In this document: piece after piece, positions 1,230 through 21,224 of the stretch
Layout of the letters: each line of letters starts with the position of its first letter
Position numbering within the stretch: the first letter of the stretch is position 1
Origin: a virus
IMG/VR virus record: IMGVR_UViG_3300034190_002949
Coordinates: 1-24,522 of that record
Length of the DNA: 24,522 nucleotides
Reading direction: 5' to 3' (one strand)
Notes under the pieces: generated by a model
What the model saw: the letters and a program-made list of their open reading frames with translations, nothing else
Told to the model about the DNA's origin: nothing
The model's database searches: none
Translations under genes and position numbers: made by a program

Positions 1230-1658
1230 ATGGAAAAGTTAATAAAAATGATCACCCGGCACGAAGGGGTGAGAAGTCACGTTTATAAATGTTCGGTTGG
1301 AATGGAAACAATCGGGATAGGCAGAGCGATTGGCGCTGGCGGGTTAGGGTTATCCGATGACGAGATAAGTATGCTTTTAGTTAATGACGTCCATCGGGTT
1401 ATTGATGAGTTATCTGCATCATTTCCTTGGTTCTTAGAATTAGACGAAGTAAGACGTGACGCCATTATTGATATTTGTTTTAACTTAGGTATCACTAAAC
1501 TATTGAATTTTAAGAACGCCTTAAATGCAATGGAGATAGAAGATTATAAAGCGGCATCTATGCATTTCTATGACAGCCGTTGGGCCAATCAAGTAGGCGA
1601 TCGTGCTGACGAGTTATGTGAAATGATCGAGACAGGAGAGTATCGAGTATGCCATTAG
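1230..1658 (+). CDS. phage lysozyme, GH24 (T4-type endolysin)
   Basis: A 142-residue muramidase expected to cleave the beta-1,4 bond between N-acetylmuramic acid and N-acetylglucosamine. The catalytic triad follows the GH24 pattern E-8-(D/C)-5-T: Glu12 (RHEG), Cys21 (YKC, where T4 lysozyme has Asp20) and Thr27 (TIGIG). Cys at the second position is a known natural variant. A later ARRDAIIDICFNLG-like helix (here RRDAIIDICFNLG, about residues 75-87) also matches the family. There is no signal peptide, so export should depend on the holins immediately upstream. TAGGAAG gives the ribosome binding site. The 3' end overlaps the next gene by 10 bases. Confidence 0.93.
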   Translation: MEKLIKMITRHEGVRSHVYKCSVGMETIGIGRAIGAGGLGLSDDEISMLLVNDVHRVIDELSASFPWFLELDEVRRDAIIDICFNLGITKLLNFKNALNAMEIEDYKAASMHFYDSRWANQVGDRADELCEMIETGEYRVCH

Positions 1659-3124
1659 TACCATTGACAATACCACCTGGCGTATTTAAGAACGGCACAG
1701 ACCTACAAAACTCAGGCCGTTGGAATGACAGTAATTTAGTAAGATGGTATGAGGGCGGTATGCAACCGGTTAATGGTTGGCGAGAACGTACTACCTCGGC
1801 ATTTACTGGTGTATGTCGTGCGTTATTGACTTGGACCAATAATGCCGGTGGCAGACAGACTGCCGCTGGCACACAATCAAAATTATATTTTGTAAATGAT
1901 TCAAATGTGATTACCGACATCACACCAACCAGTTTTACTACAGGCAATGCAGATGCCGTACAAAACTTAGGCTGGAATGCATTGACATACGGCGACAATG
2001 AATTTGGTACACCAAGACCAGACTCAGGAACTTACACACCAGCAACTACCTGGTCATTGCACCCTTGGGGCCAGTATTTATTAGCTTGCTCAAACGCCGA
2101 TGGCAAGATATATGAATGGCAATTAAACACCGGAGCAGTTGCCGCAGTATTAAGTAATGCACCGACAAGTAACACAGCAATATTCGTTACTGATGAGCGA
2201 TTTGTATTTGCACTAGGAGCGGGCGGTGTTGGCAACAAAGTGCAATGGTCGGATCAAGAAGATAACAATACCTGGTCAGCAGCGGCAACCAATCAAGCTG
2301 GTTCATTAGTGTTACAAACAGCCGGGAATCTAATTACGGCAATCAGTACAAGAGGGCAGACCCTTCTGTTTACCGATATTGATTGTCATGCAGCAACGTA
2401 TCAGGGTCCACCGTACGTTTATGGTATTAGTAAAGTCGGTGATGGATGTGGTATTGCGTCAGCCAATGCTGCCGCTACCACAGACACAGCAGCATTCTGG
2501 ATGGGTAAAAACTCATTCTTTTTATACGACGGCTCAGTGAGATCATTACCGAGTGATGTCGGTGATTATGTATTTAGTGATATCAATACTGCACAACGAT
2601 CAAAAGTGTATGCAGTTAAGAACTCAGGCCATCAAGAGATATGGTGGTTTTATCCATCATCGTCATCCACAGAAAACAATCGATACGTTTCATACAACTA
2701 TCGAGAGAATCATTGGTCAATCGGCTCATTAGCCAGAACAGCCGGAACAGACGCCGGGGTATTTATTTACCCGAACATGGTCGGTACTGATAGCAAGATA
2801 TATGAACATGAGGTTGGTTTTGATTATGACTCGGCCACTGTATTTGCAGAGAGTGGTCCAATAGAGATTGGTGCCGGTGATAGATTAATGGTTGCTAAAT
2901 CATTAATCCCAGATGAGAAAACACAAGGCGATGTAACCGCTAAATTTAAAACGCGATTGTATCCGAATGCCTCTGAGTCAACACATGGCCCATACACAAT
3001 GGCTAACCCGACATCAGTACGTTTTACTGGGCGTCAGGTAGAGATGCGTGTAGAGGGCAATATAGGCGCTGATTGGCGTGTTGGCACCATGAGATTAGAT
3101 GTCGCTCAAGGATCGAGAAGATGA
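1649..3124 (+). CDS. virion protein, probable P22 gp10-like tail hub/stabilisation protein
   Basis: A 491-residue protein with a strong AGGAGAG ribosome site inside the lysozyme gene. The N-terminus (LTIPPGVFKNGTDLQNSGRW) and repeated short beta-strand blocks with aromatic and Gly/Asp turns (LYFVNDSN, VQWSDQEDNNTW, FFLYDGS, IWWFYPSS) indicate a beta-propeller. The C-terminus (VRFTGRQVEMRVEG...WRVGTMRLDV) resembles the closing strands of P22 gp10, which plugs the portal after DNA packaging. No signal peptide. I recognise the N-terminal pattern as a common uncharacterised structural protein of short-tailed phages; the gp10 comparison is inference from architecture and from the ejection genes downstream. 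Confidence 0.7.
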   Translation: MPLVPLTIPPGVFKNGTDLQNSGRWNDSNLVRWYEGGMQPVNGWRERTTSAFTGVCRALLTWTNNAGGRQTAAGTQSKLYFVNDSNVITDITPTSFTTGNADAVQNLGWNALTYGDNEFGTPRPDSGTYTPATTWSLHPWGQYLLACSNADGKIYEWQLNTGAVAAVLSNAPTSNTAIFVTDERFVFALGAGGVGNKVQWSDQEDNNTWSAAATNQAGSLVLQTAGNLITAISTRGQTLLFTDIDCHAATYQGPPYVYGISKVGDGCGIASANAAATTDTAAFWMGKNSFFLYDGSVRSLPSDVGDYVFSDINTAQRSKVYAVKNSGHQEIWWFYPSSSSTENNRYVSYNYRENHWSIGSLARTAGTDAGVFIYPNMVGTDSKIYEHEVGFDYDSATVFAESGPIEIGAGDRLMVAKSLIPDEKTQGDVTAKFKTRLYPNASESTHGPYTMANPTSVRFTGRQVEMRVEGNIGADWRVGTMRLDVAQGSRR

Positions 3125-3327
3125 GGTTGCCTAATGTTGCAGAGCAATACGACGCACAAAATGAACGACAAAAGAATTTAACACTTGAACTCGCTGATGT
3201 GCAAAATCATAAGCGAGATCAAGACATAGAAGTAGGAGCAGCAAGGCTGATTATCAAGAGTCCAAACGGCACGAGATATGAAGTAAAAGTAAGCGACAGC
3301 GGTACGCTGTCAGCGAGTACAGTATGA
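3121..3327 (+). CDS. small conserved phage protein, unknown function
   Basis: I start at ATG 3121, which forms an ATGA overlap with the preceding stop, rather than at an in-frame ATG 48 bases upstream inside the previous gene. The 68-residue product has a charged helix (about residues 5-40, ending KRDQDIEVG) and then two or three beta strands (RLIIKSPNGTRYEVKVSDSG). This helix-then-strand pattern recurs in small genes next to the acetyltransferase-like gene of podoviruses. There is no membrane segment. Function is unknown; a small virion or assembly role is possible. Confidence 0.7.
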   Translation: MRLPNVAEQYDAQNERQKNLTLELADVQNHKRDQDIEVGAARLIIKSPNGTRYEVKVSDSGTLSASTV

Positions 3328-3695
3328 GTGATGTAAGGACGTTCTTAAAGCCATACAAGAAACTAATAGAGAAGGCATTAAAATACAATCCTGGTACTCA
3401 CACATACGAAGATGTAGTTAATGGAATCAGTAATCAGTCAATGATTTTCTGGCCAGGTAAGGACAGTTTCATTATTACTGAATTAAATAAGTTTCCACAG
3501 AAACGTTCGCTGCATTTATTTTTATCGGCTGGTAATTTAGATGAGTTAGGCAAGATGAGACCAGCTATTGAGGATTTTGCAAGTAAAGCAAAATGCGATT
3601 TTATAACGATTGCCGGACGTCCAGGTTGGGAACGTCTCGGAAAGAAATTTGGGTACAAAGCAGTTTGGACCTATTTATTTAAGGAAATAGCGTAA
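3324..3695 (+). CDS. GNAT-fold-like virion-associated protein (T7 gp13-like)
   Basis: A 123-residue protein joined to the previous gene by an ATGA overlap. It reads YNPGTHTYEDVVNGI, then FWPGKDSFIITELNKFPQ, LHLFLSAGNLDEL and GRPGWERLGKKFGYK. These blocks match a phage family with a GNAT acetyltransferase-like fold that includes T7 internal virion protein gp13 and many unnamed podoviral proteins. The typical acetyl-CoA loop (R/Q-x-x-G-x-G/A) is not evident, so enzyme activity is doubtful. Its position before the putative ejection proteins supports a role in virion assembly. Family assignment is by recall of motif order. Confidence 0.65.
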   Translation: MSDVRTFLKPYKKLIEKALKYNPGTHTYEDVVNGISNQSMIFWPGKDSFIITELNKFPQKRSLHLFLSAGNLDELGKMRPAIEDFASKAKCDFITIAGRPGWERLGKKFGYKAVWTYLFKEIA

Positions 3696-4297
3696 TGGCA
3701 TTAAGTGAAGGTGAGATAGAAAAATTAGGCAGTTTAAAATCTGAGGATAACCAGGTAAAAGATACCGGTTTACCGGAGGCGTCTTACGCGCCGAATACCG
3801 GTATGGATTATTCTCAATTTTATGGCTCCCCATTAATGGTGCAACAACCCGGAATGGATTATTACAAAAGTTTTGAGCCACAAGCACCTATGCCAAGTGC
3901 AGCAGCAAGTGCACCAGTAGCCGAGCAAGCAGTAGCGAGCTCCGGTACTGGACAACGCCCTGGATTCTATGGTGCCTATGAGGACGCTAAAGATATTCCA
4001 TATTCCAGTGAATTAGATTCCAATATGTATGACGCGCAAGGCAATCGCATTGAATTTGATTACGCCACTGGTGTATTACCTGGCACTGGTAATACACGAG
4101 ATGGCCAAGAAAGTATGTTTGGTGATTACACAATGTTTTTTAAACCAGCAAGAGAATCATTAATTGATTTGCCTTCACTATTGGGTAATGCACCAGCCGA
4201 TACATCCAGCTTAATCCCCGGTTTGATAACCGATAATACACCGCAAATTAATCAAGGGCGATCACGCTCTGGAACAACAGGAAGGAATAGAAAATAA
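3695..4297 (+). CDS. low-complexity hypothetical virion protein
   Basis: A 200-residue protein starting at a TAATG junction (one-base overlap). It is mostly disordered in appearance: rich in Pro, Gly, Ser, Tyr and Asp, with a near-repeat of GMDY (NTGMDYSQFYGSP and QPGMDYYKSFEP) and an Ala/Ser-rich linker (about residues 65-85). There is no transmembrane or catalytic motif. The tail is basic (RSRSGTTGRNRK). Translational coupling on both sides places it in the same unit as the structural genes. I do not recognise a family. Confidence 0.65.
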   Translation: MALSEGEIEKLGSLKSEDNQVKDTGLPEASYAPNTGMDYSQFYGSPLMVQQPGMDYYKSFEPQAPMPSAAASAPVAEQAVASSGTGQRPGFYGAYEDAKDIPYSSELDSNMYDAQGNRIEFDYATGVLPGTGNTRDGQESMFGDYTMFFKPARESLIDLPSLLGNAPADTSSLIPGLITDNTPQINQGRSRSGTTGRNRK

Positions 4298-5271
4298 TGG
4301 CATTTGGAAAAGATAGTTCAGCAGCAACAACTACAATGGACCCCGAAATTAAAGGGGCCTTATTTGATGTATTTGAAACCGGAAAACAAGTAGCGGCACA
4401 GCCGTATCAACCATATCAAGCACCGAGAGTCGCACCATTCTCACCGTTTCAATTACAAGGCCAACAAGCAACAGTAGATACTGCCAGAGGTGGCTTCGGT
4501 CAAAACGAAGTCAATCAAGCAGCTATGACGGCATTTAATGAATCTCAGTATCAACCGAATCAGGTTGCCTCAATGGGTCCAGGATCGGTAAATCAGGTTA
4601 ATCCCGGTTTATTTAGAAACACCGATATGGCTAATTACATGAATCCTTATACTACTGGCGCTATTGATGCGGCAATGAGCGACATAGAGAGACAACGCCA
4701 AATACAAGATACAAATATTGCTGCTTCGGCTCAAGCCGCAAACGCCTTCGGTGGAACTAGACAAGGCATACAAGAAGCCGAGAATGCGCGTAACGCATTA
4801 GATATTGGTGGCCGTATAGCCGCCGATATGCGTAACACTGGCTTTAATCAAGCAACTGGATTAGCGATGCAAGACATCGGTAATGAGATGAATGCACAGC
4901 GACTAAACCAGCAAGCGATGCTACAAGCACAACTATCTGGGATGGATGCCGATTTAAGAGCACAACAATTAAATCAAGCAGCCGGTTTACAGGGCTCTCA
5001 GAATCGTTTAGGTGCTGGAGGTATGTTAGCTGATTTAGGCGGCACGATGCGCGGTATGCGCTTCGGTGACGCCGCAGCATTAAGTGGAGTAGGTGATCTG
5101 CAACAAGCTCAAGGGCAACGAATTATGGATGACCAGTACGGACGATTTGCAGAGCAACGTGATTACCCAATCAGAATGTTGGATATATTACGCGGTGTTT
5201 CTGGATTGTTACCAAGTCCAGTTGGTCAAACTTCTAAATCTAAAGGATTTAATTTTGCGGGATCAGCATAA
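4297..5271 (+). CDS. putative internal/ejection virion protein
   Basis: A 324-residue, Gln/Ala/Met-rich helical protein. The central block NPYTTGAIDAAMSDIERQRQ, followed by AANAFGGTRQGIQEAE, is a pattern I know from many short-tailed phage proteins encoded beside DNA-ejection proteins. The following 100 residues are repetitive Q/A/L helices (MNAQRLNQQAML, DLRAQQLNQAAGL). No signal peptide or clear membrane span. By context it is probably carried in the particle and takes part in genome delivery. The one-base TAATG overlaps on both sides point to co-translation with its neighbours. Confidence 0.65.
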   Translation: MAFGKDSSAATTTMDPEIKGALFDVFETGKQVAAQPYQPYQAPRVAPFSPFQLQGQQATVDTARGGFGQNEVNQAAMTAFNESQYQPNQVASMGPGSVNQVNPGLFRNTDMANYMNPYTTGAIDAAMSDIERQRQIQDTNIAASAQAANAFGGTRQGIQEAENARNALDIGGRIAADMRNTGFNQATGLAMQDIGNEMNAQRLNQQAMLQAQLSGMDADLRAQQLNQAAGLQGSQNRLGAGGMLADLGGTMRGMRFGDAAALSGVGDLQQAQGQRIMDDQYGRFAEQRDYPIRMLDILRGVSGLLPSPVGQTSKSKGFNFAGSA

Positions 5272-5645
5272 TGGATATAATTAAATTACTGTCCTTGATG
5301 AAAGGTAGCGGCGCAAAAACACCAGAAAAAAAAGTAAAACCCAAAAGTGGATTATTTGGTGATCCTATGCAATTTGTAAAAGAAGGTATGCGTAAATCAT
5401 TCCAAAATTCAGATATAGGCGGTTTACTTGATGATCCAATGAATTTTGCAAGACAACAATTTCATAATAGTGATATTGGACGTTTAGCTGATTCACCAAA
5501 AAAGTTTTTGGAATATGATTTATTAGGCGGTGTTACAAAAACTCCCGCTGAGTTTCAGCGTTATAGAATGAAAGAATATTTGTTAGAACAAGGCATGACA
5601 TCCGATCAAGCAGATCAAATATTGGGTGCAATGCCACAAACTTAA
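5271..5645 (+). CDS. small repeat-containing hypothetical protein
   Basis: A 124-residue protein whose middle consists of an imperfect tandem repeat: GDPMQFVKEGMRKSFQNSDIGGL, then DDPMNFARQQFHNSDIGRL, then a degenerate DSPKKFLEYDLLGG. The shared core is D-P-M-x-F-x(n)-F-x-N-S-D-I-G. The N-terminus is strongly basic (KTPEKKVKPK). Starts at a TAATG junction with the preceding gene. No membrane segment or catalytic motif. Given its position among ejection-type genes it may be a minor virion protein; function unknown. Confidence 0.65.
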   Translation: MDIIKLLSLMKGSGAKTPEKKVKPKSGLFGDPMQFVKEGMRKSFQNSDIGGLLDDPMNFARQQFHNSDIGRLADSPKKFLEYDLLGGVTKTPAEFQRYRMKEYLLEQGMTSDQADQILGAMPQT

Positions 5646-5657
5646 ATGGAATAGAAA

Positions 5658-6992
5658 ATGGCAGAAGAACTTAATTTATTTCAACAAGCACTTACCAATA
5701 TACCGAGGAACTTTGGTAGGCGCTTGGGTGAAAGTATATATTTATATGACTCCCCGGAACGCCAAGCTGCAAAAGCCGAAGCTAGTTATTATCAGAGCCG
5801 TGCTCAATTACTGGATAATCAAAGAAAATTAATCGGTGAAACAAAAAGTGCTCAAGATGTTTTATTGAAAGGATTCGATCCAGTACAAAAAGCACAAATA
5901 CAAAGTATGCGTGATGCCGATGGAAGGTTGACTCAAGATGCAGTTAATTTAGCTAAGAGCATACAACAAGGTAATACTATTTATGAATCGATGTTGTTAA
6001 ATCCAGAAAACAATCAATACAGAAATTTAATTCAAAATACTCCAAAAAATGAATTAATGAATTTAAGTGTTGATCTAAGCCCAGAAGAAGCGGTATTTGC
6101 TGGCAGACCAGCTAATGCTAATCTCAAAAGAAATTTATACACAGGTGAAATCATAACAGAAACCCCTGGTGCTTTTACTGAGGCCGAACAGAAATTACGC
6201 AGAAAACGTGAAACTGATCCAAACGCACAATACACCGATGTTTTGGCTGATGAAGCTGCAAGAGAAGCAGTAAAACTCAATAAAGCGAAAGATAGAACTA
6301 TTGAAACAGATAAAGAACGCCAGATGTTAGCGGGTGCAAATACAGGTTGGATAGAAACAGATAAGTTGTTCGCAAAACAACTAAATGACTGGTACAACGG
6401 TGATCGTATTGCTTCTCTTGATAGTAAAAATAAATTAAAACGCGCTGCCGAAGCATTGAAAAGCGGTGACAATAAAATCTCTGGAAGATTTGTAGGGCTT
6501 TTACCAAATTATTTATTGCCAGACGAAACACTTAATACTCGCCAAGAAATAGAAGGCGTTATTCAAAAATCATTACGCTTAACATTAGGTGCGGCGTTTA
6601 CCGAGGATGAAGCCAAAATGTTAATGGCGCGTGGTTTTAATCCATTACTTGATGAAAGTCAAAACTTAGCCAGGGTAAATGATTTGATTGATCAAGTTAA
6701 TGCCTTGGAATCAAGCATGGCTTCAAGAGAAAAGTATTGGATTGCACATAACCAATCCTTGAGGGGTTATGAAGGTATGACCCCCGAAGAAGAAAAAGAA
6801 ACTTTATTAACGACGTTTGGTACCAGTACCGAAGAGATGAAAAAGTCGTCTGTAGAAGATTTAATGGCTCAAAGAAGAAGCGCGGTTGATAATAGCGATC
6901 GGATTATGATTGAAGTGGTAGAACAAGAATTACAACGTCGTGCCAAAAATAATGATCCAGAATTAATGAAATTTATGAATGAGAATAAATAA
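5658..6992 (+). CDS. putative DNA ejection/internal virion protein, all-helical
   Basis: A 444-residue, charged, almost wholly alpha-helical protein without a signal peptide or membrane span. The segment about residues 300-345 (IQKSLRLTLGAAFTEDEAK, then ARGFNPLLDESQNLARV) matches a motif I associate with putative DNA ejection proteins of podoviruses (a 'SLR-LGA-FTE-E' helix followed by a 'NP-L-EE-N' helix). Gene order, following the Q-rich protein and before the amphipathic 559-residue protein, resembles the three-protein ejection cassettes of P22-like phages. Start is an ATG 12 bases after the previous stop. Enzymatic function is not indicated. Confidence 0.65.
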   Translation: MAEELNLFQQALTNIPRNFGRRLGESIYLYDSPERQAAKAEASYYQSRAQLLDNQRKLIGETKSAQDVLLKGFDPVQKAQIQSMRDADGRLTQDAVNLAKSIQQGNTIYESMLLNPENNQYRNLIQNTPKNELMNLSVDLSPEEAVFAGRPANANLKRNLYTGEIITETPGAFTEAEQKLRRKRETDPNAQYTDVLADEAAREAVKLNKAKDRTIETDKERQMLAGANTGWIETDKLFAKQLNDWYNGDRIASLDSKNKLKRAAEALKSGDNKISGRFVGLLPNYLLPDETLNTRQEIEGVIQKSLRLTLGAAFTEDEAKMLMARGFNPLLDESQNLARVNDLIDQVNALESSMASREKYWIAHNQSLRGYEGMTPEEEKETLLTTFGTSTEEMKKSSVEDLMAQRRSAVDNSDRIMIEVVEQELQRRAKNNDPELMKFMNENK

Positions 6993-8671
6993 TGGCTGTC
7001 GATCAATTAAGTCAATTTTTAGCAGAGCAAGATAGATTAGCTGCACAACCACAACAACCAAGCACTGACGCATCAGCAGTACAAACTGCTGTCGCGTCAG
7101 ATCCATTTAAACTATTAAGCCCAGAATATGTGTATGAAAATCGAGAGGCTTTAGGTTCTACTTCACCCAAGATGGATACTATGCTTGGTAATGTGCCTGG
7201 CAGTACAGTAGATTTAGCTGATGCAGTTACTTATCCCATTAGACACCCAATTGATTTTACTAGCTCTATGATTGAGTTAGGTAGTGGCATTATTAACCTA
7301 GCAACACCCGGTGAACAGCCAAGTGAAGCCACAGCCAAGGCAGTAGGCCAATACATAGCTAATCGGTATGGCTCATTAAACGCTGCTCAAGAGGCATTGA
7401 TTAACGATCCAATGGGAGTAATAGCAGACGCTACTGCTATTCTTACGTTAGGTGGCACAGGATTAGCTAGGATGAGCGGTAAAGCCGGTCAGATAGCTAA
7501 AGACACAGCTAATATTGCTACTAAGGTTGATCCAGTTGTACAAGGTATACAAGGCATACAATCTGCTTTTAATGTTGCAGCACCAGTAACTAATCGTTTT
7601 GTTTCTCGCGTACAAAGTATGTTGCAAGGTACTGGCCAATTAGATAATTACAACGCATTTATGGCTGCTAAAAGAGGTGGTCAAGCCGAGGCAGCGTTAT
7701 TAGATAATATGCGTGGCAATGTAGAGCCAAAAGTCGTGGTTGAGGCTGTTATGTCTAAGTTAAAAGATGAATCACGCCGTCGTGCCGGTGAATACCAAAC
7801 TGGTATGAGACAACTTGAGCAAACTAAAATGGTTGATATGCAACCTATTATCGATGAGTTAGCGGCTTTAAAAGCAGATGCTTATGCTAAAGGTACAAGC
7901 AAAGCGACTTTAGAAACGCCTATTATGGTTCCTGGTTCTATTGATTTATTAACAGATATGGAAAAAATGATAAATCAATGGAAAGCTAACCCAGAATTAC
8001 AAACAGTCACTAATATGGATGGATTAAAAATATTAATTGACGATATGTATAAAATGGATATGCCCAAAACTTCAAAACGCCTTGTTGCCAGTATGCGATC
8101 CAAAGTGTATGACGAGATCGTTAAACAAGTACCAGAATACGCTGATATTATGAAAGCGTATGAGCAATCAATAACTCTACAAAGTGATTTAGAAAAAGTA
8201 TTTTCTGCTAGTGGTAAAGCAATGCCAGAAACAACATTAAGAAAATTACAAGGTGCACTTCGAGATAATGTAAATACCAGTTTTAATGCACGAGCATCTA
8301 GTTTAAAGCAATTAGATAATCTGGGCAGTGAAGCGAATATCTTAGAATCTTTGACCGGGCAATCATTAAGAACAGCCATGCCACGAGGTTTACCAAGATT
8401 ATCGGCAGTACCACTTATCGGTACAAGCGCCACATTAAATCCAGCTATGGCTGCCTTACTTGCAGCCGGTAGCTCACCTAGATTGACTGGTGAAATTTCA
8501 ATGGCTATGGGTAGAGCACAACGCAACCTAGCACCAGCAATGTCGGCTTTACCAGAGGCATCCAGAATATCCAGAGTAGCGGGTGATGTTTCACAGGCAT
8601 CTCAAATGCGTCCAGAGCAACCCGGTTTAAACGATGAAGAAAAACAATTCTTGCGTATGCTAGGGAACTAA
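6992..8671 (+). CDS. putative large ejection protein, amphipathic
   Basis: A 559-residue protein with a TAATG start junction. It opens with a Gln/Ala-rich linker, then a block about residues 65-165 with semi-hydrophobic helices (VDLADAVTYPIRHPIDFTSS, NDPMGVIADATAILTLGGTG), a long charged helical middle (about 200-440), and an Ala/Gly/Leu-rich C-terminal region (LNPAMAALLAAGSS). The mix of soluble helices and marginally hydrophobic stretches is typical of phage proteins that leave the capsid and form a conduit across the envelope. No catalytic motif seen. Assigned by composition and position, so the role is inference. Confidence 0.6.
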   Translation: MAVDQLSQFLAEQDRLAAQPQQPSTDASAVQTAVASDPFKLLSPEYVYENREALGSTSPKMDTMLGNVPGSTVDLADAVTYPIRHPIDFTSSMIELGSGIINLATPGEQPSEATAKAVGQYIANRYGSLNAAQEALINDPMGVIADATAILTLGGTGLARMSGKAGQIAKDTANIATKVDPVVQGIQGIQSAFNVAAPVTNRFVSRVQSMLQGTGQLDNYNAFMAAKRGGQAEAALLDNMRGNVEPKVVVEAVMSKLKDESRRRAGEYQTGMRQLEQTKMVDMQPIIDELAALKADAYAKGTSKATLETPIMVPGSIDLLTDMEKMINQWKANPELQTVTNMDGLKILIDDMYKMDMPKTSKRLVASMRSKVYDEIVKQVPEYADIMKAYEQSITLQSDLEKVFSASGKAMPETTLRKLQGALRDNVNTSFNARASSLKQLDNLGSEANILESLTGQSLRTAMPRGLPRLSAVPLIGTSATLNPAMAALLAAGSSPRLTGEISMAMGRAQRNLAPAMSALPEASRISRVAGDVSQASQMRPEQPGLNDEEKQFLRMLGN

Positions 8672-8672
8672 T

Positions 8673-9968
8673 ATGCCTTACAGATCACCGTATCGCCGCA
8701 GACCCTCAAGTGATTTAGCAGCCGACCCTGAGTTTCTCAAAGGAAGGGCGGCTGGTCTACTCGGTATACCCGGAGATATGATTAACTTGGTTGGCCGTGA
8801 TCTACCGGCAGCAATGACGCAAGATATGCCAGCAGATCGTCCTTCACTGATTGGTGGTCCGTACCAAGCTGGACCACCAATAAAAAGAGACAATACGCCA
8901 TTACCACCATTCTCTGAGCGTGTTGGTACCAGTGACTATATTGCAAAACAAATGGGCGCTGACCCTAATTCATTAAAGACTCAAGCTGGAATATTAGCCG
9001 GGTTAAATCCAGCATCGTTATTAAAGGCTGCACCATTATTAGCTACAAAATTAAGTAAAGGCTCTGGATTGCTAGATGATGCAACTCGGCTAAAAAGAGC
9101 AAAAGACATGGGATTTAATGTAGATCAAACTCAATATCATGGCACTCATGCAAAAAATATAAATAAGTTTGATGATAGTTATATCGGCAACCGCGATGAA
9201 GGGTTTTTTGGTAGAGGTCATTATTTTACAACCGAGTCTGGTGAAGCATCGTATTATGGTCCTAATGTTGGTGAATACTTTACTAGAGGTAAAATATTAG
9301 ATTTATCCCCAAATAAAACAAATTCTGATTTTTTGTTAGAAGACAAAAAATATTTTAAATTTTGGACAAAAGAATTAGACAAGTTAGATATGTTAGACGA
9401 GCCTACACAAAAAGGTTTAAAAACAATTAACAAGATAGATGACTATGTGGACACAAATGTAAAAGTAATGAAAGGAAAGAACTCTAATGGCACCGATGGA
9501 TTTACCGCCAGTGTAAAACACCCAACAAGAAAACCGTATGTATTTAAAGATGCTAACGGTAAAAAAAGAAGTATTGATGAAACTTTGGACTCACCCTTAT
9601 TTAACAGAGGTGACGGCGTGGAGTTTTACGAAACAAAAGAAAAGGCAATAAAAGCATTAAAAAATAGAATTATTTATGAGGCTGAACACTTTGGTGAATT
9701 AAAAACAGTTTATCCGGATGTAGGAAATATTTTATACAGCTTGTCCGATTACATTAGAGTAGGTGGTAAAGGTGCTGCTGAACTTACAAAACAAGCAAAA
9801 AAAGCTGGTTATGATGGAATTAGGGTTGGCGATGAAACCGTTATATTTGATCCAAAAAACATTCGATCTAAAGATGCTGTATTTGATCCTAAAAAAACAG
9901 ATTCATCAGATTTAACGTCAAATCTTTTAGGCCAAAGTAAACCACCAATGAGATCATTATTGGCCTAG
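8673..9968 (+). CDS. ejection-type protein with C-terminal ADP-ribosyltransferase domain (ART-PolyVal-like)
   Basis: A 431-residue protein. Residues 1-115 resemble the N-termini of phage internal proteins (RAAGLLGIPGDMINLVGRDLP). The remainder looks like an ADP-ribosyltransferase of the H-Y-E class: YHGTHAKNINKFD with His156, FFGRGHYFTT with Tyr184, and a final block YDGIRVGDETVIFDP with Glu388 as candidate catalytic acid, followed by the KNIRS..A.FDP ending familiar from the polyvalent-protein ART family. The gap between Tyr184 and Glu388 is long and AT-rich (about residues 205-345), suggesting an insertion. It would transfer ADP-ribose from NAD+ to a host target, perhaps on entry as T4 Alt does. 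Activity and target are not shown. Confidence 0.72.
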   Translation: MPYRSPYRRRPSSDLAADPEFLKGRAAGLLGIPGDMINLVGRDLPAAMTQDMPADRPSLIGGPYQAGPPIKRDNTPLPPFSERVGTSDYIAKQMGADPNSLKTQAGILAGLNPASLLKAAPLLATKLSKGSGLLDDATRLKRAKDMGFNVDQTQYHGTHAKNINKFDDSYIGNRDEGFFGRGHYFTTESGEASYYGPNVGEYFTRGKILDLSPNKTNSDFLLEDKKYFKFWTKELDKLDMLDEPTQKGLKTINKIDDYVDTNVKVMKGKNSNGTDGFTASVKHPTRKPYVFKDANGKKRSIDETLDSPLFNRGDGVEFYETKEKAIKALKNRIIYEAEHFGELKTVYPDVGNILYSLSDYIRVGGKGAAELTKQAKKAGYDGIRVGDETVIFDPKNIRSKDAVFDPKKTDSSDLTSNLLGQSKPPMRSLLA

Positions 9969-9971
9969 TCA

Positions 9972-10322
9972 ATGGATGACATAATCAACCTAATCAACCA
10001 GGTGGGTTTTCCAGTAGCTTCCGCACTGGGCCTTGGATTCTTTATCTGGAAACTTATAAACCGAATTATTGATGGTATGGAAGCCAAGATTGATGTCGTT
10101 GACGAAAAGGTTGACGCATCACTTAATGCTATGGAGGAGCGTTTATCATCTAAGTTAGACAGTCAATACGGCATTATCGTCAGTTTAATAGATAGATGTC
10201 GCCAGATAGACCAATCGTTAATAAGAAACGATGTCATGCTTAAAACACTTTTAAAAGTACCAGAACTGATAGATACCTATGACATTACAAAAGCAGAAAA
10301 GAAAGATCAGAGACACGATTAG
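9972..10322 (+). CDS. single-span membrane protein, holin-like (UviB/BhlA-like topology)
   Basis: A 116-residue protein with one hydrophobic helix near the N-terminus (about residues 10-30, VGFPVASALGLGFFIWKLI) followed by a long charged coiled coil (about 34-70) and a mostly helical tail. The VGFPVA opening and helix-plus-coil layout recall UviB/BhlA-type bacteriocin-release holins. It starts three bases after the ART gene and its end overlaps the csgF start by 44 bases, so it belongs to the same transcript. It could be a further lysis factor or an inner-membrane partner of the curli genes. I considered CsgE and rejected it, since CsgE is a secreted soluble protein. Confidence 0.6.
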   Translation: MDDIINLINQVGFPVASALGLGFFIWKLINRIIDGMEAKIDVVDEKVDASLNAMEERLSSKLDSQYGIIVSLIDRCRQIDQSLIRNDVMLKTLLKVPELIDTYDITKAEKKDQRHD

Positions 10323-10749
10323 ATTAATCGCATTTCTGCTGTTAGCAAACAGCAGTAATGCCGATGAATTATTATTCAAATTTAAAAGCCCAAGTTTCTC
10401 AGGAGTAAACAGCAGCAGTCATTACCTAACAATCGAGAATCAAGAAAACACCAGAAAGAACGCCATACGAGAAAAGATTGAATCCGATGCTGATGATTTA
10501 GCAAGAGCACAGCAGAATACAACACTAGCTCGGTTTATTCGTAATTTTGAATCAAGAGTTTATGCACAACTATCAAGGCAATTAGTAGATCAGTTATTTG
10601 GTGAGAATCCGAGCACGGAAGGTAAATTAGAGTTAGAAGGCAATTTAATAGAATACATAGCAGAAGCAGATAAAATTACATTGACAATTACTGATGAGAA
10701 TGGCGACACAACAACTATTACGGTTCCTACTGCTTCTTTCACTTTCTAG
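10279..10749 (+). CDS. csgF: CsgF-like curli assembly protein
   Basis: A 156-residue protein. An N-terminal signal peptide (basic KQKRKIRDTIR, then LIAFLLLANSSNA) precedes a mature start ELLFKFKSPSFSG that aligns well with E. coli CsgF (MTFQFRNPNFGG), the part that inserts into the CsgG pore. The middle (TLARFIRNFESRVYAQLSRQ) and the end (LTITDENGDTTTITVP) match CsgF's helix and C-terminal strands. CsgF works at the outer membrane, where it binds the CsgG channel and helps anchor nucleation of curli amyloid. The ATG at 10279 lies within the preceding gene; no closer ATG exists. The 3' end overlaps csgG by 56 bases. Confidence 0.85.
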   Translation: MTLQKQKRKIRDTIRLIAFLLLANSSNADELLFKFKSPSFSGVNSSSHYLTIENQENTRKNAIREKIESDADDLARAQQNTTLARFIRNFESRVYAQLSRQLVDQLFGENPSTEGKLELEGNLIEYIAEADKITLTITDENGDTTTITVPTASFTF

Positions 10750-11503
10750 TTGTGCAGTTAATTATAGTGATCTACAAAAAGATGGATTACCATATATTGT
10801 AATAAACGAAGCATCGGTGATTCAGCTTCAATCCGAAGAATTGAAGGCTGTACCACCAGCCAAAAGAAAACCAGTCATCGCCGTTTATGCGAACAGTCTG
10901 CAAGACCTAACCGGGCAAAGAAAATCCAATGGCCAGTTTGCATTGTTCTCGACAGCAATCACACAAGCGCCAGAGGCGTACTTAATTAGAGCCTTAAAAC
11001 ACACTGCTAATGGAAAATTCTATCAAGTAGTAGAGAGAGTCGGTTTAGACAGTTTAACCAAGGAAAGGCAATTAATACGCTCTACAAGGGATAACTTTGA
11101 CGAGGAGAGCAAGGTACAACCTCTTTTGTTGGCTGGACTGTTAATTCAAGGAGGCGTGTTATCTCTAGATACTAGCGTAAAGAGCGGGGGTCTTGGCGGC
11201 AGAATATTAGGTATCTCGTCAAGCAAGCAATGGCGAGAAGATACGATCACCGTGTCATTGAGGCTGGTATCGGTTTCTACTGGTGAAGTGTTGATTGAGA
11301 CATTAACCAGTAAAACCGTTTTATCGGTTTCGTTATCACAGGATGTGTTTCGCTTTATTAGCCAGGGCAGTCAACTATTGGAACTTGAGGGTGGGGTAAC
11401 TGAGAACGAGAGCACTTCAATTGCTCTACAAAGAGCAATTGAAAGTGCGGTACATGAAATAACTTTAATCGGTGTAGATAGAGGATACTGGGAGTATGAA
11501 TAA
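10694..11503 (+). CDS. csgG: CsgG-family outer-membrane secretion channel lipoprotein
   Basis: A 269-residue protein with a lipoprotein signal (LLRFLLLLSLSSC, lipobox Cys20). The body follows CsgG closely: TGQ...FSTA, then VKSGGLGGRILGISSSKQWR, VSLRLVSVSTGEVL, SKTVLS, DVFRFI, and the ending IGVDRGYWEYE (E. coli: DGIDRGLWDLQ). CsgG forms a nonameric beta-barrel that exports unfolded curlin subunits. In the constriction loop the phenylalanine equivalent to E. coli Phe56 is kept (ALFSTA), but Asn55 is replaced by Leu and the Tyr51 region is altered and one residue longer. A second possible start is ATG 10700. No CsgE gene is present in the window, so gating may differ. Confidence 0.93.
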   Translation: MRMATQQLLRFLLLLSLSSCAVNYSDLQKDGLPYIVINEASVIQLQSEELKAVPPAKRKPVIAVYANSLQDLTGQRKSNGQFALFSTAITQAPEAYLIRALKHTANGKFYQVVERVGLDSLTKERQLIRSTRDNFDEESKVQPLLLAGLLIQGGVLSLDTSVKSGGLGGRILGISSSKQWREDTITVSLRLVSVSTGEVLIETLTSKTVLSVSLSQDVFRFISQGSQLLELEGGVTENESTSIALQRAIESAVHEITLIGVDRGYWEYE

Positions 11504-12212
11504 ATTATTTTTAGGTATATTTTTAATATTGATAATATCGTTAGCCTACGCTGACGATAACGAGATATTCGTAGATCAAGTAGGTGCTACAGCAAATATT
11601 GATCTTGAGCAATTGGGATCAGGAAATATTATTGGTGGTATTAATGCACAAGCCGGGAACATGACGGCGTTAGATTTAGACGGAACGTCCATGACGTTAG
11701 ATATAAATCAGATCGGTAACAGTAATAAATTCTTTGGCGATATGTATGCTGACAGTTATACAGGTTTCTTTGAGTTTGATGGCGACTCAAATACATTCAC
11801 ATCGAAGATGGATCCAACGAATGCGTTTGGTGCTGATAACTCAAACGTAAACGTTGATATTACAGGTGGAAGTAATACGTTCACTTTGGATTTAGCAACA
11901 ACAGCATTAGCCAGTAGTACCGATTTAGATTGGATTGTGCAAGGTGACAGCAATCAAATTGATGCAGACATCAATTATGATAGCGGCACCAATTACATGA
12001 ACGTAGACGGTGATTCTAATAATATTAATTTTGTAGGATCAGGTGCAGCACAAGGATATTTTCACATAGAGCATGACGGCGACTCAAGGACATTTGACAT
12101 TGATCAAATTACAACATTGGATAGTAGCTATCTCAAGATTCTGTCTAACGGCAATAATGGTACTTTCTGTATCCAGCAAGACGATGCCTCAGGAACTTCC
12201 CTTGGATGTTGA
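11496..12212 (+). CDS. curlin-repeat secreted protein (CsgA/CsgB-like)
   Basis: A 238-residue protein with a clear signal peptide (MNKLFLGIFLILIISLAYA). The mature part is acidic and built of about eight curlin-type units of roughly 20-28 residues around the core hydrophobic-x-hydrophobic-x-G-x-S-N-x-hydrophobic-x-hydrophobic, for example LDINQIGNSNKFFGDM, FEFDGDSNTFTSKM, VDITGGSNTFTLDL, WIVQGDSNQIDADI and MNVDGDSNNINFVG. Such units stack as a beta-solenoid in curli amyloid. The C-terminus contains two cysteines (FCIQQDDASGTSLGC). It overlaps csgG by 8 bases, so it is the probable CsgG substrate. Whether it acts as fibre subunit, nucleator or soluble adhesin cannot be told from sequence. Confidence 0.82.
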   Translation: MNKLFLGIFLILIISLAYADDNEIFVDQVGATANIDLEQLGSGNIIGGINAQAGNMTALDLDGTSMTLDINQIGNSNKFFGDMYADSYTGFFEFDGDSNTFTSKMDPTNAFGADNSNVNVDITGGSNTFTLDLATTALASSTDLDWIVQGDSNQIDADINYDSGTNYMNVDGDSNNINFVGSGAAQGYFHIEHDGDSRTFDIDQITTLDSSYLKILSNGNNGTFCIQQDDASGTSLGC

Positions 12213-13230
12213 TATTGGAAGTATCACAGAGTTAAGAGGGAACACCAGAGTAGTAAGAGATAAGCCCTATGAGAGCGTTATAGACTTCTCTCTTAACTCT
12301 ATGGATCGCTTAGAGACGGCTAATGGACGAATGGGCGTTACGTTCCGGGATGAGACAACTATAAGACTCACACAGCATAGTGAGGTTGTTGTAGATGAAT
12401 TTGTATTCGATCCTGACCCAAGCAAGTCATCAATGGCTCTTAATTTTATTAAAGGCACTGGACGGTTTATATCCAGCAAAAAACCACGCATACCAAAAGA
12501 TAATATCTCGATACGCACTAATGCAGCCACGATCGGTATTCGTGGTACCGATTTTACTTTAACTGTAAAAGAGACCGGAGAGACGCTTGTAATACTTTTA
12601 CCGGATGAAACCGGTGAAGCAAGTGGCGAAATAACTGTCAATACGGCTCTGGGCCAAGTTATTTTAAATAAACCTTATGAATCTACGACAGTAATGAATT
12701 TTGAGTCTACCCCAACGCCATCGGTAATATTAGACCTTACTCTGAGCATGATTGATAACATGCTCATAGTAAATCCACCTCAAGAAAAAGAATCTACTGT
12801 TAATGAAACTAATACGAATGCAGTCAATATATTAGATGTTGATTTTTTAGAGTTTGACGAATTAGAGCAAGACGAATTAAAAGAAGATGACCTGGAATAT
12901 ACCGAGTTAGATATTAACTATTTGGATGTTAATTTTTTAGAAGATTTATTGGATGTAATTGTAGATGTAGATGAATTAAAAAAAGCTGAAAAATCATTAG
13001 CTTCTGATGGAGTAAGAGGTACCGCAATCGGTTTTGATTCAGAAACTCAGATTAATACTTTTGTTAATGATAATGAGGTAAAATTAATTCGCCAGGTACA
13101 AGATACAATTCAAATAACAAATAGTAAAAGTGATTCAGTATCGATTACAATGGAGCAAGAAGGGAAAATTAATAAGATAGATATTAATGGTGGGTCATCA
13201 TCCACTATTAATATCAAACAAGGGAGCTAA
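12073..13230 (+). CDS. FecR-domain secreted protein with 5-residue leucine repeats and curlin-like tail
   Basis: A 385-residue reading frame. Residues about 49-163 are a FecR domain (GSITELRGNTRVVR, MGVTFRDETTIRLT, NAATIGIRGTDF). Residues 254-293 carry leucine every fifth position in an acidic setting. The last 40 residues (SITMEQEGKINKIDI, then STINIKQGS) resemble curlin repeats. The start is uncertain: ATG 12073, ATG 12157 and ATG 12184 are in frame, and TTG 12100 has AAGGA nine bases upstream and would give a signal peptide (IKLQHWIVAISRFCLTAIMVLSV). Any of these overlaps the curlin gene. FecR domains usually serve as periplasmic sensors or peptidoglycan/surface modules; here an anchoring or nucleating role for the amyloid is my inference. 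Confidence 0.75.
   Translation: MTATQGHLTLIKLQHWIVAISRFCLTAIMVLSVSSKTMPQELPLDVDIGSITELRGNTRVVRDKPYESVIDFSLNSMDRLETANGRMGVTFRDETTIRLTQHSEVVVDEFVFDPDPSKSSMALNFIKGTGRFISSKKPRIPKDNISIRTNAATIGIRGTDFTLTVKETGETLVILLPDETGEASGEITVNTALGQVILNKPYESTTVMNFESTPTPSVILDLTLSMIDNMLIVNPPQEKESTVNETNTNAVNILDVDFLEFDELEQDELKEDDLEYTELDINYLDVNFLEDLLDVIVDVDELKKAEKSLASDGVRGTAIGFDSETQINTFVNDNEVKLIRQVQDTIQITNSKSDSVSITMEQEGKINKIDINGGSSSTINIKQGS
12832..12951 (+). repeat. eight-unit 5-residue leucine repeat within the FecR protein
   Basis: Leucines occur at residues 254, 259, 264, 269, 274, 279, 284 and 289, exactly five apart. The unit is roughly L-(D/E)-x-(D/N)-(F/E/Y), for example LEFDE, LEQDE, LDINY, LDVNF. The period matches that of pentapeptide-repeat beta-helices, though the usual A-(D/N)-L-x-x register is not followed exactly. 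Confidence 0.75.
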
Positions 13231-13233
13231 AAG

Positions 13234-13250
13234 TTATACAAAAGTTATAC
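13234..13250 (+). repeat. left arm-type repeat (candidate integrase arm site)
   Basis: The 17-mer TTATACAAAAGTTATAC is identical to one at 13514-13530 on the other side of the tRNA-like core. Here it is part of a tandem 11-bp repeat AAGTTATACAA (13231-13241 and 13242-13252). Direct repeats flanking the core of attP are the usual arm-binding sites of tyrosine integrases. Confidence 0.65.
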
Positions 13251-13370
13251 AAATTTTTCCTTTTTTTTACAATAATGCATCATATTTATATTATTTTATA
13301 ATACTCAAGATACTCTATAAGCCCCTAGATAAGCTAATATAACTAATATGATTACGCTATACTCATAAAA

Positions 13371-13433
13371 GACATGGACTTAAAATCCGTTGTCCGAAAG
13401 GACGTGCCGGTTCGAGTCCGGCTCTGGGCACCA
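13371..13433 (+). other. attP core: 3' half of tRNA-Leu(UAA)
   Basis: From the anticodon arm to CCA the sequence folds as a class II tRNA: anticodon stem ATGGA/TCCGT (13374-13378 and 13386-13390) with loop CTTAAAA and anticodon TAA at 13381-13383, a variable-arm hairpin GTCC-GAAA-GGAC, T-arm GCCGG-TTCGAGT-CCGGC (13406-13422), acceptor 3' strand TCTGGGC, discriminator A and CCA. No D-arm or matching acceptor 5' strand (GCCCAGA) is present upstream, so it is not a complete gene. Phages that integrate into the 3' end of a tRNA carry exactly such a segment to restore the gene after insertion. The true crossover boundaries cannot be read without attB. Confidence 0.85.
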
Positions 13434-13459
13434 TGATAAGTAGTTGATTTAATTATATT

Positions 13460-13507
13460 AAACCTCTTTGTTGATTTTCTTTGGAAGATTAGGGAAGGGG
13501 TTTTTTT
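13460..13507 (+). terminator. candidate intrinsic terminator downstream of the tRNA segment
   Basis: A 9-bp stem AAACCTCTT (13460-13468) with AAGGGGTTT (13495-13503), one G-U pair, encloses 26 bases that can form a small inner hairpin (TTTTC-TTTG-GAAGA), and is followed by a T-run. In the integrated state it would terminate the restored host tRNA; in the free phage it would separate the FecR transcript from int. Confidence 0.5.
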
Positions 13508-13513
13508 GTGGAA

Positions 13514-13530
13514 TTATACAAAAGTTATAC
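13514..13530 (+). repeat. right arm-type repeat (candidate integrase arm site)
   Basis: Exact second copy of the 17-mer found at 13234-13250, about 80 bases downstream of the tRNA core and 58 bases before the integrase start. Confidence 0.65.
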
Positions 13531-13588
13531 ACTTTTTTTGATGTTTAGTTTATATTTATGATAATAATATTATTTTTATGGGGCAATT

Positions 13589-19470: not shown

Positions 19471-21224
19471 TGCTCTTAGACAAACCGAAAACTCAAGAGG
19501 ACGTCCAAGACGCCATCCTTGAGTTATCTCGTGAGCTTGATGTCCATGTCATTCCTTGCGGTAAAGATAAGCGGCCACTCGTGCCCTGGAAGCATTATCA
19601 AGAGAACAAACCAACCGAACAAGACATTGAGAAATGGATAAAGCAGCACCCGGATTGTATGTGGGGTGCTATTACCGGTCCAAAATCTTTTGGCGTCGTT
19701 GACCTTGATACTTATCAAGACGATTCGCTGATACCTTGGGCCAAGGAGAATCTACCTTGGACTCCTTTAAAAGCCACCACAAAATCTGGTGGGCAACATT
19801 GGATTTACTCAAAAATGCCAGAGGATACTACCGTCAGTGCTGGCTCTGGAATTGATCTAAGGAACAAGGGCGGTTATGTCATTTTCTCTGGACCAGGTTA
19901 CGAATGGAATTGGCAAGACCCGACTGAGGACTTTTTTAATTTCAGAGAATTGCCGGAGCTAGAGCCACAACATATAGAGAAAATTGAAAGGCGTCGCGGC
20001 AAAAATAAAGTCACTAATATATTAAGTGATGAGAGTTGGCATGATAACGCACTACGTTGGGTTGGCAGTTGCGTTGCCAGAGGACTCGGTGACGACACGA
20101 TATTAAGGGAGTGTGAGAAATTAACTCAAGCCGGTTACTCACACTCACAAACCAGAGAAGAAATCCGGGTGATGATAAAAGGCGCCAGACTGAAAGGCTG
20201 GACTCCACCTATTGATGATCGCCCAATCGAAGTATTGAGAATAGATGACGCATTTGATTTAGAGCATCGTAAACCACCGGAGTTTCTAGGTGAGGGATTC
20301 ATCGCCGCCGGGTTTAGGGTATTTGTAGTCGGTGCTCCGAAGATCGGTAAATCACAATTGGTATTAGAGGCTCTAACAACTGCCGCAGTTGGCGGCAAGT
20401 GGTTAGATATGAAATGGGATAAGCCACATAAGACATTGTGGTTACAGGCAGAGATCAGAGGTGCCTATGTTGGCTCTCGGTTACGTCCATTATTTGAGTC
20501 ATTTAATGACGATGAAAAGGAACTCATCAGAGAGAATTTCTTTTGGACTGAGAGAGGCGATCTTGATTTAGCCTCTAACTTTAATCGTCTTAAAGCATTA
20601 ATAAAACGAATACAGCCATCTATCGTTTGTATAGATCCATTGGCTAACTACTTTGTAGGCGATGAGAACTCTAACGCCGAAGTTGCTGTTTTCTTTAAGA
20701 AACTGAATGAGCTATTTGCCAGTGAGACATTAGGGATGGACGCACCACCTTGTGTGTTCTTAGTGCATCACACCAGAAAAGGTGCCACTACCCAAGACGG
20801 ATTTGATGGTGCTCGTGGAGCATCATCACTCACCGGGTGGATGGACTCAGGTATTTTAATGACGGCAGCTAATACCAGTGCGATTAATTTAAGTTTCTTA
20901 ACTAGGAACGGACCTTGGCCAGAAGAACGCCTCGTTAAATTAAATCCAGATTCAATGCGGTTAGAAAACTTTGTAGATGCTGTCGAGCATCCACAAATGC
21001 TACCGGAGATTATGAAGAGCATGGCCCATAGAGATTGGGTGAGTGCATACGATGTGAACAGTTTAATTGCGGAGCAATGTCATCGCCTTGGCTTAGAGGT
21101 GGATGGCGAGATTGCCAGAGAGATCAGATTGACAGTCGTGAATCATAAACATATTGAGCATCAAGGTACTGGGCAGAATACCGAGTATCGATTAAAACCG
21201 AAGGTGAGGAGAGGGTATCAATGA
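19461..21224 (+). CDS. primase-polymerase / replicative helicase fusion
   Basis: A 587-residue protein. Residues about 15-165 form a Prim-Pol domain: VVDLDTY (Asp81, Asp83), KSGGQHWIY (His113) and GIDLRNKGGYVI give the metal and nucleotide site. Residues about 280-480 are a RecA-like ATPase of the RepA/AAA_25 type: Walker A GAPKIGKSQ (291-299), Walker B SIVCIDPL (Asp392) and FLVHHTRKG (His437). The C-terminal 90 residues may be a winged-helix or origin-binding part. It probably primes and unwinds the phage origin. The start overlaps the cro-like stop; ATG 19470 in a TGATG junction is an alternative start. Confidence 0.9.
   Translation: MGLMLLDKPKTQEDVQDAILELSRELDVHVIPCGKDKRPLVPWKHYQENKPTEQDIEKWIKQHPDCMWGAITGPKSFGVVDLDTYQDDSLIPWAKENLPWTPLKATTKSGGQHWIYSKMPEDTTVSAGSGIDLRNKGGYVIFSGPGYEWNWQDPTEDFFNFRELPELEPQHIEKIERRRGKNKVTNILSDESWHDNALRWVGSCVARGLGDDTILRECEKLTQAGYSHSQTREEIRVMIKGARLKGWTPPIDDRPIEVLRIDDAFDLEHRKPPEFLGEGFIAAGFRVFVVGAPKIGKSQLVLEALTTAAVGGKWLDMKWDKPHKTLWLQAEIRGAYVGSRLRPLFESFNDDEKELIRENFFWTERGDLDLASNFNRLKALIKRIQPSIVCIDPLANYFVGDENSNAEVAVFFKKLNELFASETLGMDAPPCVFLVHHTRKGATTQDGFDGARGASSLTGWMDSGILMTAANTSAINLSFLTRNGPWPEERLVKLNPDSMRLENFVDAVEHPQMLPEIMKSMAHRDWVSAYDVNSLIAEQCHRLGLEVDGEIAREIRLTVVNHKHIEHQGTGQNTEYRLKPKVRRGYQ

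What the first reader, a model, noticed from the sequence alone, without database searches (positions are those of the whole stretch)
9972..13230. Reduced curli secretion locus carried by a temperate phage
CsgF, CsgG, a curlin-repeat protein and a FecR-domain protein with a curlin-like tail are encoded in overlapping order between virion genes and attP. Seen directly: CsgG lipobox and body motifs, CsgF mature N-terminus, curlin repeats, signal peptides. Known: in E. coli CsgG/CsgF export and anchor curli with CsgE, CsgB and CsgA. CsgE, CsgC and CsgD are absent here. Inference: either a lysogenic conversion module that coats the lysogen with amyloid or adhesin, or a late outer-membrane pore aiding release or surface exclusion. 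I have an uncertain memory that curli-type genes were noted in some marine phages; the FecR/curlin fusion and this order may still be new.
Basis: partly seen in the sequence, partly recalled or inferred. Interest (0 to 1): 0.85.

Follow-up and report, generated by a model that had tools for sequence, protein, structure and literature searches.

The report
Curli export genes in integrating phage
A virus that can settle into its bacterial host's chromosome carries a compact set of genes for exporting a curli-like surface protein; this gene set is already known from other ocean viruses, but the integrating carrier, its likely host group and the swapping of the set between related viruses are new detail.

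Summary
CsgF, CsgG, a curlin-type repeat protein and a FecR-domain protein lie in overlapping order between virion genes and attP-integrase, led by a small membrane protein gene. The kind is known: the same order is published for pelagiphages (PMC9599517), and csgGF was reported for sediment temperate viruses (PMC9636769).

New detail:
(1) Temperate carriage: the module adjoins integrase in the window and 4 of 5 informative integrase relatives. attP is a tRNA-Leu(UAA) end found exactly in five small gammaproteobacterial genomes; one holds a prophage remnant (FecR end plus attR) 97.8% identical to a sister phage.
(2) The csgF-to-FecR block behaves as an exchangeable cassette: about 70% identical between two phages with 87-98% identical flanks.
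(3) All partners are kept wherever contigs reach (75/75, 73/73, 71/71, 55/55), pointing to export, not a bare pore.
(4) The leading "histidine kinase" has no kinase domain; FecR is probably an exported partner, not a regulator.

The FecR tail is conserved (25/25) but unproven as a curlin repeat. The module ends a gap-free operon of virion and lysis genes without a visible promoter, so late lytic expression is likelier than lysogenic conversion. Function remains inferred.

The parts
9972..10322 (+). Small membrane protein (116 aa, one hydrophobic segment then coiled coil, by eye), relatives published as 'histidine kinase'; no kinase domain found
   Evidence: phrog_18771 E 2.4e-13; 17 relatives scanned, no HisKA/HATPase match, weak YvrJ in 3; relative present in 73 of 73 testable csgG contigs
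10279..10749 (+). CsgF
   Evidence: PF10614 6.7e-21; phrog_35372 3.6e-40; mature N-terminus F-x-F-x-x-P-x-F-x-G aligns with E. coli CsgF, weakly on its own, E 0.041
10694..11503 (+). CsgG, outer-membrane lipoprotein pore subunit
   Evidence: PF03783 3.3e-45; E. coli CsgG structures 2.3e-37
11496..12212 (+). Curlin-type repeat protein, 238 aa, signal peptide-like start (by eye), two C-terminal cysteines
   Evidence: Invariant G/N columns; profile hits bacterial csg-linked ORFs, 0 in reversed control, 7 of 7 checked are Pfam curlins; AF2 pLDDT 75.4, strand-rich, solenoid-like; Cys pair 25 of 25
12073..13230 (+). FecR-domain protein ORF (true start unresolved); acidic Leu-rich linker; conserved C-terminal motif
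   Evidence: PF04773 4.3e-11; phrog_37870 3.1e-64; fold of PupR/4m0h FecR-type domains, E 1.2e-6 to 6.5e-6; tail motif 25 of 25; no conserved start codon
13231..13375 (+). attP left arm
   Evidence: Similar sequence between a FecR end and a tRNA-Leu 3' end in bacterial locus L091
13376..13434 (+). attP core = 3' end of tRNA-Leu(UAA)
   Evidence: Exact 45-mer in five bacterial genomes: inside complete tRNA-Leu genes in 4 (L089, L090, L092, L093), at the prophage remnant's attR in L091
13435..13576 (+). attP right arm / tRNA terminator-like region
   Evidence: 86% match over 13376-13576 downstream of tRNA-Leu in L093, 89% over 13376-13538 in L091
13589..14722 (+). Tyrosine integrase
   Evidence: PF00589 9.6e-21, phrog_1 7.3e-37

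Best explanation
This is a phage-borne type VIII secretion (curli-type) module on a temperate, tRNA-Leu-integrating phage (podovirus-like, inferred) of a small-genome gammaproteobacterium. It is most likely transcribed late in lytic growth as the end of the virion/lysis operon. A CsgG ring in the outer membrane, with CsgF seated in it, exports the curlin-type repeat protein and the FecR-domain protein to the surface of the infected cell, where they form a solenoid or amyloid-like coat or fibre. That coat most likely changes contacts of the dying cell and its debris: excluding rival phages, or holding sibling cells and progeny together. The block is exchanged as an allelic cassette between related phages, as expected of an exposed, diversifying surface factor. 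Shown: gene identities, order, conservation, attP, a prophage remnant, a diverged block between similar flanks. Inferred: late timing, pore assembly, export of both partners, the coat and its benefit.
For: Families. Partners retained wherever contigs reach: CsgF 75/75, small membrane protein 73/73, curlin 71/71, FecR 55/55. Curlin homology with empty reversed control and 7 of 7 checked hits being Pfam curlins. Conserved CsgF N-terminus, the part that sits in the pore in solved CsgG-CsgF complexes (recalled). Window ORFs from 65 to 13230 on one strand, largest gap between those I take as genes 12 nt; first module gene within 60 nt of an upstream co-oriented ORF (mechanical ORFs) in 62 of 70 contigs; a relative of the window's lysozyme or putative holin within 3.5 kb upstream in 36 of 55, the lysozyme alone in 30 of 55. 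Purifying selection in L082-L083: dN/dS about 0.1-0.24 in csgF, csgG, curlin, FecR 0.009/0.056. Diverged block. Integrase, repressor-like gene and attP; prophage remnant.
Against: No expression, microscopy or protein data. The FecR start, and hence its signal peptide, is unresolved: no FecR-frame start codon is conserved and no synonymous constraint marks an overlapping start, so its export is inferred. The curlin model had no significant Foldseek match; the second aligner showed beta-helices in general and no curli entry. No clumping was seen in cultures of phage Melnitz (PMC9004378, passages read). CsgE was not found, so substrate gating is unexplained. In 19 of 55 contigs no lysis-gene relative was found near the module. 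The 3' edge of the diverged block is gradual, so the exchange is less clear there.
Confidence: 0.5

Rival explanations
1. Lysogenic conversion: the prophage expresses the module from its edge beside attR and coats the lysogen with an adhesin or amyloid.
For: Position beside attP in the window, L082 and L083, hence at the attR edge once integrated, as the remnant in bacterial locus L091 shows; the same slot holds other genes in L084; a paper states that csgGF is enriched in sediment temperate viruses.
Against: 3-nt gap to the virion-side gene upstream; no + strand promoter-like site between 8600 and 10770, and 12 sites in the region against 18.6 (sd 5.3) in shuffles (sigma-70 consensus only); 0 of 46 csg records tested match an integrase (records mostly partial), so the module does not depend on lysogeny; a single bacterial remnant was found and that genome has no CsgG match.
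Confidence: 0.22
2. Lysis or release aid: CsgG serves as an outer-membrane pore timed with the lysis genes, as proposed for Melnitz.
For: Relative of the window's lysozyme or putative holin within 3.5 kb upstream in 36 of 55 contigs; gap-free operon; the leading small membrane protein has a weak, 18-residue match to a holin family (phrog_4898 E 0.01).
Against: A pore alone does not need curlin (71/71) or FecR (55/55) partners; the window has its own endolysin and a putative holin (my label; phrog_1544 is of unknown function) 8-9 kb upstream.
Confidence: 0.15
3. Import or regulation: an ungated pore for nutrients, with FecR as iron-dependent regulator and the first gene as sensor kinase.
For: FecR domain fold close to anti-sigma signalling domains; proposed in PMC9599517 (passages read).
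Against: No kinase domain in 17 members; no anti-sigma domain in the FecR protein; of the 15 best cellular FecR matches after the remnant, 9 lie in open frames of over 1,000 aa (6 in frames of 346-534 aa); curlin retention unexplained.
Confidence: 0.05

Closest known systems
Pelagiphage T8SS module (HTVC023P-type podoviruses and pelagimyophages; PMC9599517, PMC7029224)
   Same: Same gene order: small 'HK' protein, CsgF, CsgG, CsgA/B repeat protein, FecR; no CsgE/C/D reported
   Different: The word integrase does not occur in the main text of PMC9599517; here attP and integrase follow FecR, where that paper often finds a second repeat gene and an adenylate cyclase; gammaproteobacterial rather than SAR11 host indicated; its 'HK' and 'regulator' readings are not supported here
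Melnitz (OM43) and HTVC008M csg clusters (PMC9004378; L094, L095)
   Same: Small membrane pair, CsgF, CsgG, curlin-type protein, FecR protein in order; CsgG 41-44% identical
   Different: Large Kyanoviridae (141-147 kb) with a second repeat protein and an adenylate cyclase; the paper states that csgA/csgB are lacking, although a Melnitz record annotates curlin-repeat proteins
Bacterial curli operons (E. coli csgBAC-csgDEFG and proteobacterial relatives)
   Same: CsgG, CsgF, curlin-type substrate
   Different: No CsgE found; relatives of the phage FecR protein and of the small membrane protein were near csgG in 0 of 15 bacterial regions examined, a small sample

Membership tests
Phage T8SS (curli) module of marine phages | CsgF-CsgG-curlin-FecR in order, small membrane gene first | tested here: met
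Phage T8SS (curli) module of marine phages | CsgG more closely related to phage than to bacterial CsgG | tested here: met
   Tree of 91 rows: the 84 phage rows lie on one side of a branch, 100/98; only 7 bacterial rows, and the tool flags long branches
Curli / type VIII secretion | CsgG pore and CsgF | tested here: met
Curli / type VIII secretion | Curlin-repeat substrate | tested here: met
   Profile of phage relatives hits bacterial csg-linked ORFs with empty reversed control, 7 of 7 checked are PF07012; but no direct Pfam curlin hit in the window protein, and in only 1 of 27 aligned relatives
Curli / type VIII secretion | CsgE adaptor | tested here: not met
   No PF10627 match in the record, which may be partial; PMC7029224 calls CsgE not essential (passage read)
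Curli / type VIII secretion | Amyloid fibre on the cell surface | not testable with these tools
   Needs experiment
Temperate phage | Integrase, repressor, attP matching a bacterial tRNA, prophage state | tested here: met
   the prophage state is seen only as a decayed remnant of a sister phage in L091
FecR/curlin fusion protein | C-terminal curlin repeat | tested here: inconclusive
   Motif conserved 25/25; weak trend only: hhalign E 0.09-0.11 against 0.27-0.71 in mixed-direction controls; tail HMM best E 0.013 in phage curlins against 0.5 reversed, but a reversed bacterial ORF reached 0.0084
FecR transmembrane signalling regulator | Cytoplasmic anti-sigma domain before the FecR domain | tested here: not met
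   Only PF04773 found at E<=1
Histidine kinase (published label of first gene) | HisKA / HATPase domains | tested here: not met
   0 of 17 members match at E<=0.1
Lysogenic conversion (moron) module | Own promoter, expression in lysogen | tested here: inconclusive
   No + strand promoter-like site upstream, gap-free operon; expression not testable

The most novel reading that the evidence does not exclude
The curli block is an exchangeable surface-antigen-like cassette of marine phages: late in infection the phage remakes the outside of its own dying host with an exported curlin plus an exported FecR protein acting as anchor or nucleator, and phages swap diverged alleles of it as they do tail fibres or exclusion genes, possibly to exclude or capture specific kin or rivals.
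Probability: 0.3. Interest if true: 0.72.

Novelty: new member of a known kind. Interest (0 to 1): 0.5.

Why it matters
Marine phages keep a whole bacterial export system whose purpose is unknown. This case ties it to a temperate phage with an identified integration site and a likely host group, which gives a way to separate lysogenic from late-lytic roles. It also speaks against three published readings (bare lysis pore, FecR regulator, histidine kinase), and the diverged block between similar flanks points to selection at the cell surface.

Tried and rejected
Misassembled host DNA: rejected, since other contigs repeat both junctions. FecR tail as curlin repeat: tail HMM and profile-profile alignment gave a weak trend above most reversed controls, never significant, and one reversed bacterial ORF scored better. 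A strict curlin motif count in the window curlin was only mildly above shuffles (3 against a mean of 0.86, 101 of 2000 as high); the looser GxxN count was stronger (7 of 5000). FecR signal peptide overlapping the curlin gene: hydrophobic in many relatives but not in L008 and L018 (by eye), no conserved start codon, no synonymous constraint; left unresolved. A frameshift fusion of curlin to FecR was considered and dropped because I saw no conserved slip site (by eye). Fold of the curlin model: no significant Foldseek match; the second aligner gave SufB/SufD and other beta-helices up to Z 16.9, taken only as 'beta-solenoid'; curli entries did not appear, which proves nothing. Complete csg prophage in cells: the FecR profile over 246 genomes of the order of the remnant's bearer found only that genome; the integrase search over the same 246 found nothing and had no positive control. 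The FecR rows used a wrong reading frame and are void; redone.

Limits of counts: of 145 csgG relatives found, the tool kept 80; L082 and L083 are not among them. One search covered 46 of these 80 records, many of them short. One search counts only contigs long enough by my length cut-offs. Of 7 integrase relatives, L085 and L088 stop at or before the module and were left out of '4 of 5' (L085 may hold the last few dozen bases of FecR by a blastn match); L086 and L087 show only its end. One search used 15 regions chosen by me from the matches, leaning to CsgG unlike the enteric type; in L136 the phage CsgG profile found nothing and in L130 and L132 it matched weakly. The curlin profile includes the proteins of the two cultured phages L094 and L095. 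PMC9599517 places viral FecR nearest to alphaproteobacterial ones in its tree; my sample of 398 genomes found no cellular full-length relative, and does not refute that.
Full report
What is there. The window is a 24,522-base virus record with virion genes, an endolysin, a repressor-like gene, recombination and primase genes and an integrase. The ORFs that I take as genes from 65 to 13230 run on one strand with gaps of at most 12 nt. At the end of this run lie a 116-aa membrane protein, CsgF, CsgG, a curlin-type repeat protein and a FecR-domain protein, each ORF overlapping the next. Behind them come attP and integrase.

Homology. CsgF and CsgG are beyond doubt. CsgG aligns with the solved E. 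coli pore from residue 49 to 268. CsgF keeps the FxFxxPxFxG mature N-terminus; the match to solved CsgF is weak by itself (E 0.041). The curlin-type protein misses Pfam, yet a profile of its phage relatives finds ORFs in regions around bacterial csgG, 33 against none in reversed controls (the two sets share some genomes), and 7 of 7 that I checked are Pfam curlins. Invariant glycine/asparagine columns recur every 22-33 residues and 25 of 25 aligned relatives end in a cysteine pair. The AF2 model is strand-rich (pLDDT 75.4) and similar to beta-helices in general.

FecR protein. The FecR domain is predicted with fair confidence and resembles PupR and 4m0h; the rest is low confidence. No anti-sigma domain was found. 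Among 398 sampled genomes of the phylum, 90 hold a match to the phage FecR profile at E 1e-10; of the 15 best after the remnant, 9 lie in open frames of over 1,000 aa (up to 7,792) and 6 in frames of 346-534 aa; of the listed matches only the remnant in G049 covers the C-terminal part, positions 212-384. The C-terminal motif is kept in 25 of 25 relatives, but its likeness to curlin is a weak trend, not significant. I therefore read it as an exported partner rather than a regulator; its start and signal peptide are unresolved.

First gene. Relatives are published as a histidine kinase (PMC9599517, passages read). None of 17 relatives of 85-116 aa matches a kinase domain; the weak leads are YvrJ and, over 18 residues, a holin family. 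It is nevertheless constant before CsgF (73 of 73), often as two adjacent copies.

Survey. In 50,697 deposited phage records, 7 match the CsgG. Of 145 relatives in IMG/VR, 80 were returned. Wherever contigs reach far enough, every partner is present. The first module gene follows an upstream co-oriented ORF within 60 nt in 62 of 70 contigs (mechanical ORFs). A relative of the window's lysozyme or putative holin lies within 3.5 kb upstream in 36 of 55, the lysozyme alone in 30 of 55. 'Holin' for window 744-1223 is my label; its PHROG is of unknown function. None of 46 of these records matches an integrase.

Temperate lineage. Seven relatives of the integrase were found. Two carry the whole module beside it, two its end, one (L084) has other genes in that place, two stop at or before it. 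In the CsgG tree the window, L002, L003, L082 and L083 form one supported set (98/93). attP holds the 3' end of tRNA-Leu(UAA); an exact 45-mer occurs in five genomes of 1.2-1.4 Mb whose titles say Legionellales, Woeseiaceae or Gammaproteobacteria. In four it lies in a complete tRNA-Leu gene; in L091 it lies at the attR of the remnant, and that contig's complete tRNA-Leu differs slightly. None of the five genomes has a CsgG match. That these bacteria are marine I take from some of the isolate names (recalled), not from a call. In L091, from a genome titled AG-313-J15 (a single-cell name, recalled), the FecR end, the attP left arm and the tRNA end adjoin host DNA, 97.8% identical to L082 over 726 bases and 81.5% to the window, with a right-arm copy beside the complete tRNA-Leu; the genes between match no window protein. 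This is what a decayed csg prophage would leave, although an assembly or amplification chimera cannot be excluded.

Cassette exchange. Between window and L082, identity in 100-base bins is 95-98% from 9972 to 10371, then 48-87% (mean about 69) to 13171, then 87, 90, 95 and 95% through attP. The 5' edge, in the csgF signal-peptide region, is sharp; the 3' edge near the FecR end is gradual. Within the close pair L082-L083 the genes are under purifying selection. Diverged alleles between similar flanks suggest exchange and selection for difference at the surface; that step is inference.

Function. Retention of the curlin and FecR partners speaks for secretion rather than a bare pore. The gap-free operon, the absence of a + strand promoter-like site upstream and the frequent lysis neighbours speak for late expression. 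Lysogenic conversion remains possible because of the attR-edge position. The published proposals are sibling capture, superinfection defence and import (PMC7029224, PMC9599517) and lysis control (PMC9004378), all read as passages. A further paper states that csgGF is enriched in sediment temperate viruses (PMC9636769, passage read).

Novelty. The module is known, and integrating carriers have been mentioned in bulk statistics. My searches listed no title or abstract start that describes the csg-attP-integrase arrangement, the tRNA-Leu site or the exchange; the library holds only open-licence papers and I read passages of six of them, not whole texts.

Noticed in passing
L091:286-4705: Three tRNA-Leu 3' ends in tandem with two short islands between them: an integration hot spot in a small gammaproteobacterial genome; L093 has a second copy of the core about 6 kb away too.
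   Followed up: partly
L084:761-7571: A phage with the same integrase and immunity region has five genes unlike the window's where the csg module would sit (383, 756, 336, 669, 135 aa; weak nidogen-like and tail-fibre hits).
   Followed up: partly
window 12073-12230: The FecR reading frame runs open into the curlin gene in the window and the IMG/VR relatives examined, but no FecR start codon is conserved; how its translation starts is unclear.
   Followed up: partly
window 21221-22736: DNA methyltransferase match in a 168-aa ORF overlapped by a 446-aa ORF in another frame; a similar pair occurs in L087.
   Followed up: no
window 8673-9968: Protein just upstream of the module weakly matches an ADP-ribosyltransferase domain of polyvalent proteins (PF18760, E 1.1e-06, below its cut-off).
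   Followed up: no
L095:6716-9510: A Melnitz record annotates two curlin-associated repeat proteins and a FecR protein although the Melnitz paper states that csgA and csgB are lacking.
   Followed up: partly
window 13231-13253 and about 13513-13533: ATACAAAAGTTATAC-type repeats on both sides of the attP core look like arm-type integrase sites (read).
   Followed up: no
phage record OR851715.1, 295-951: A 1,499-base record titled Salmonella phage S.Kent 1-2-1 holds a csgG match (38% identity); too short to tell whether it is phage or bacterial DNA.
   Followed up: no
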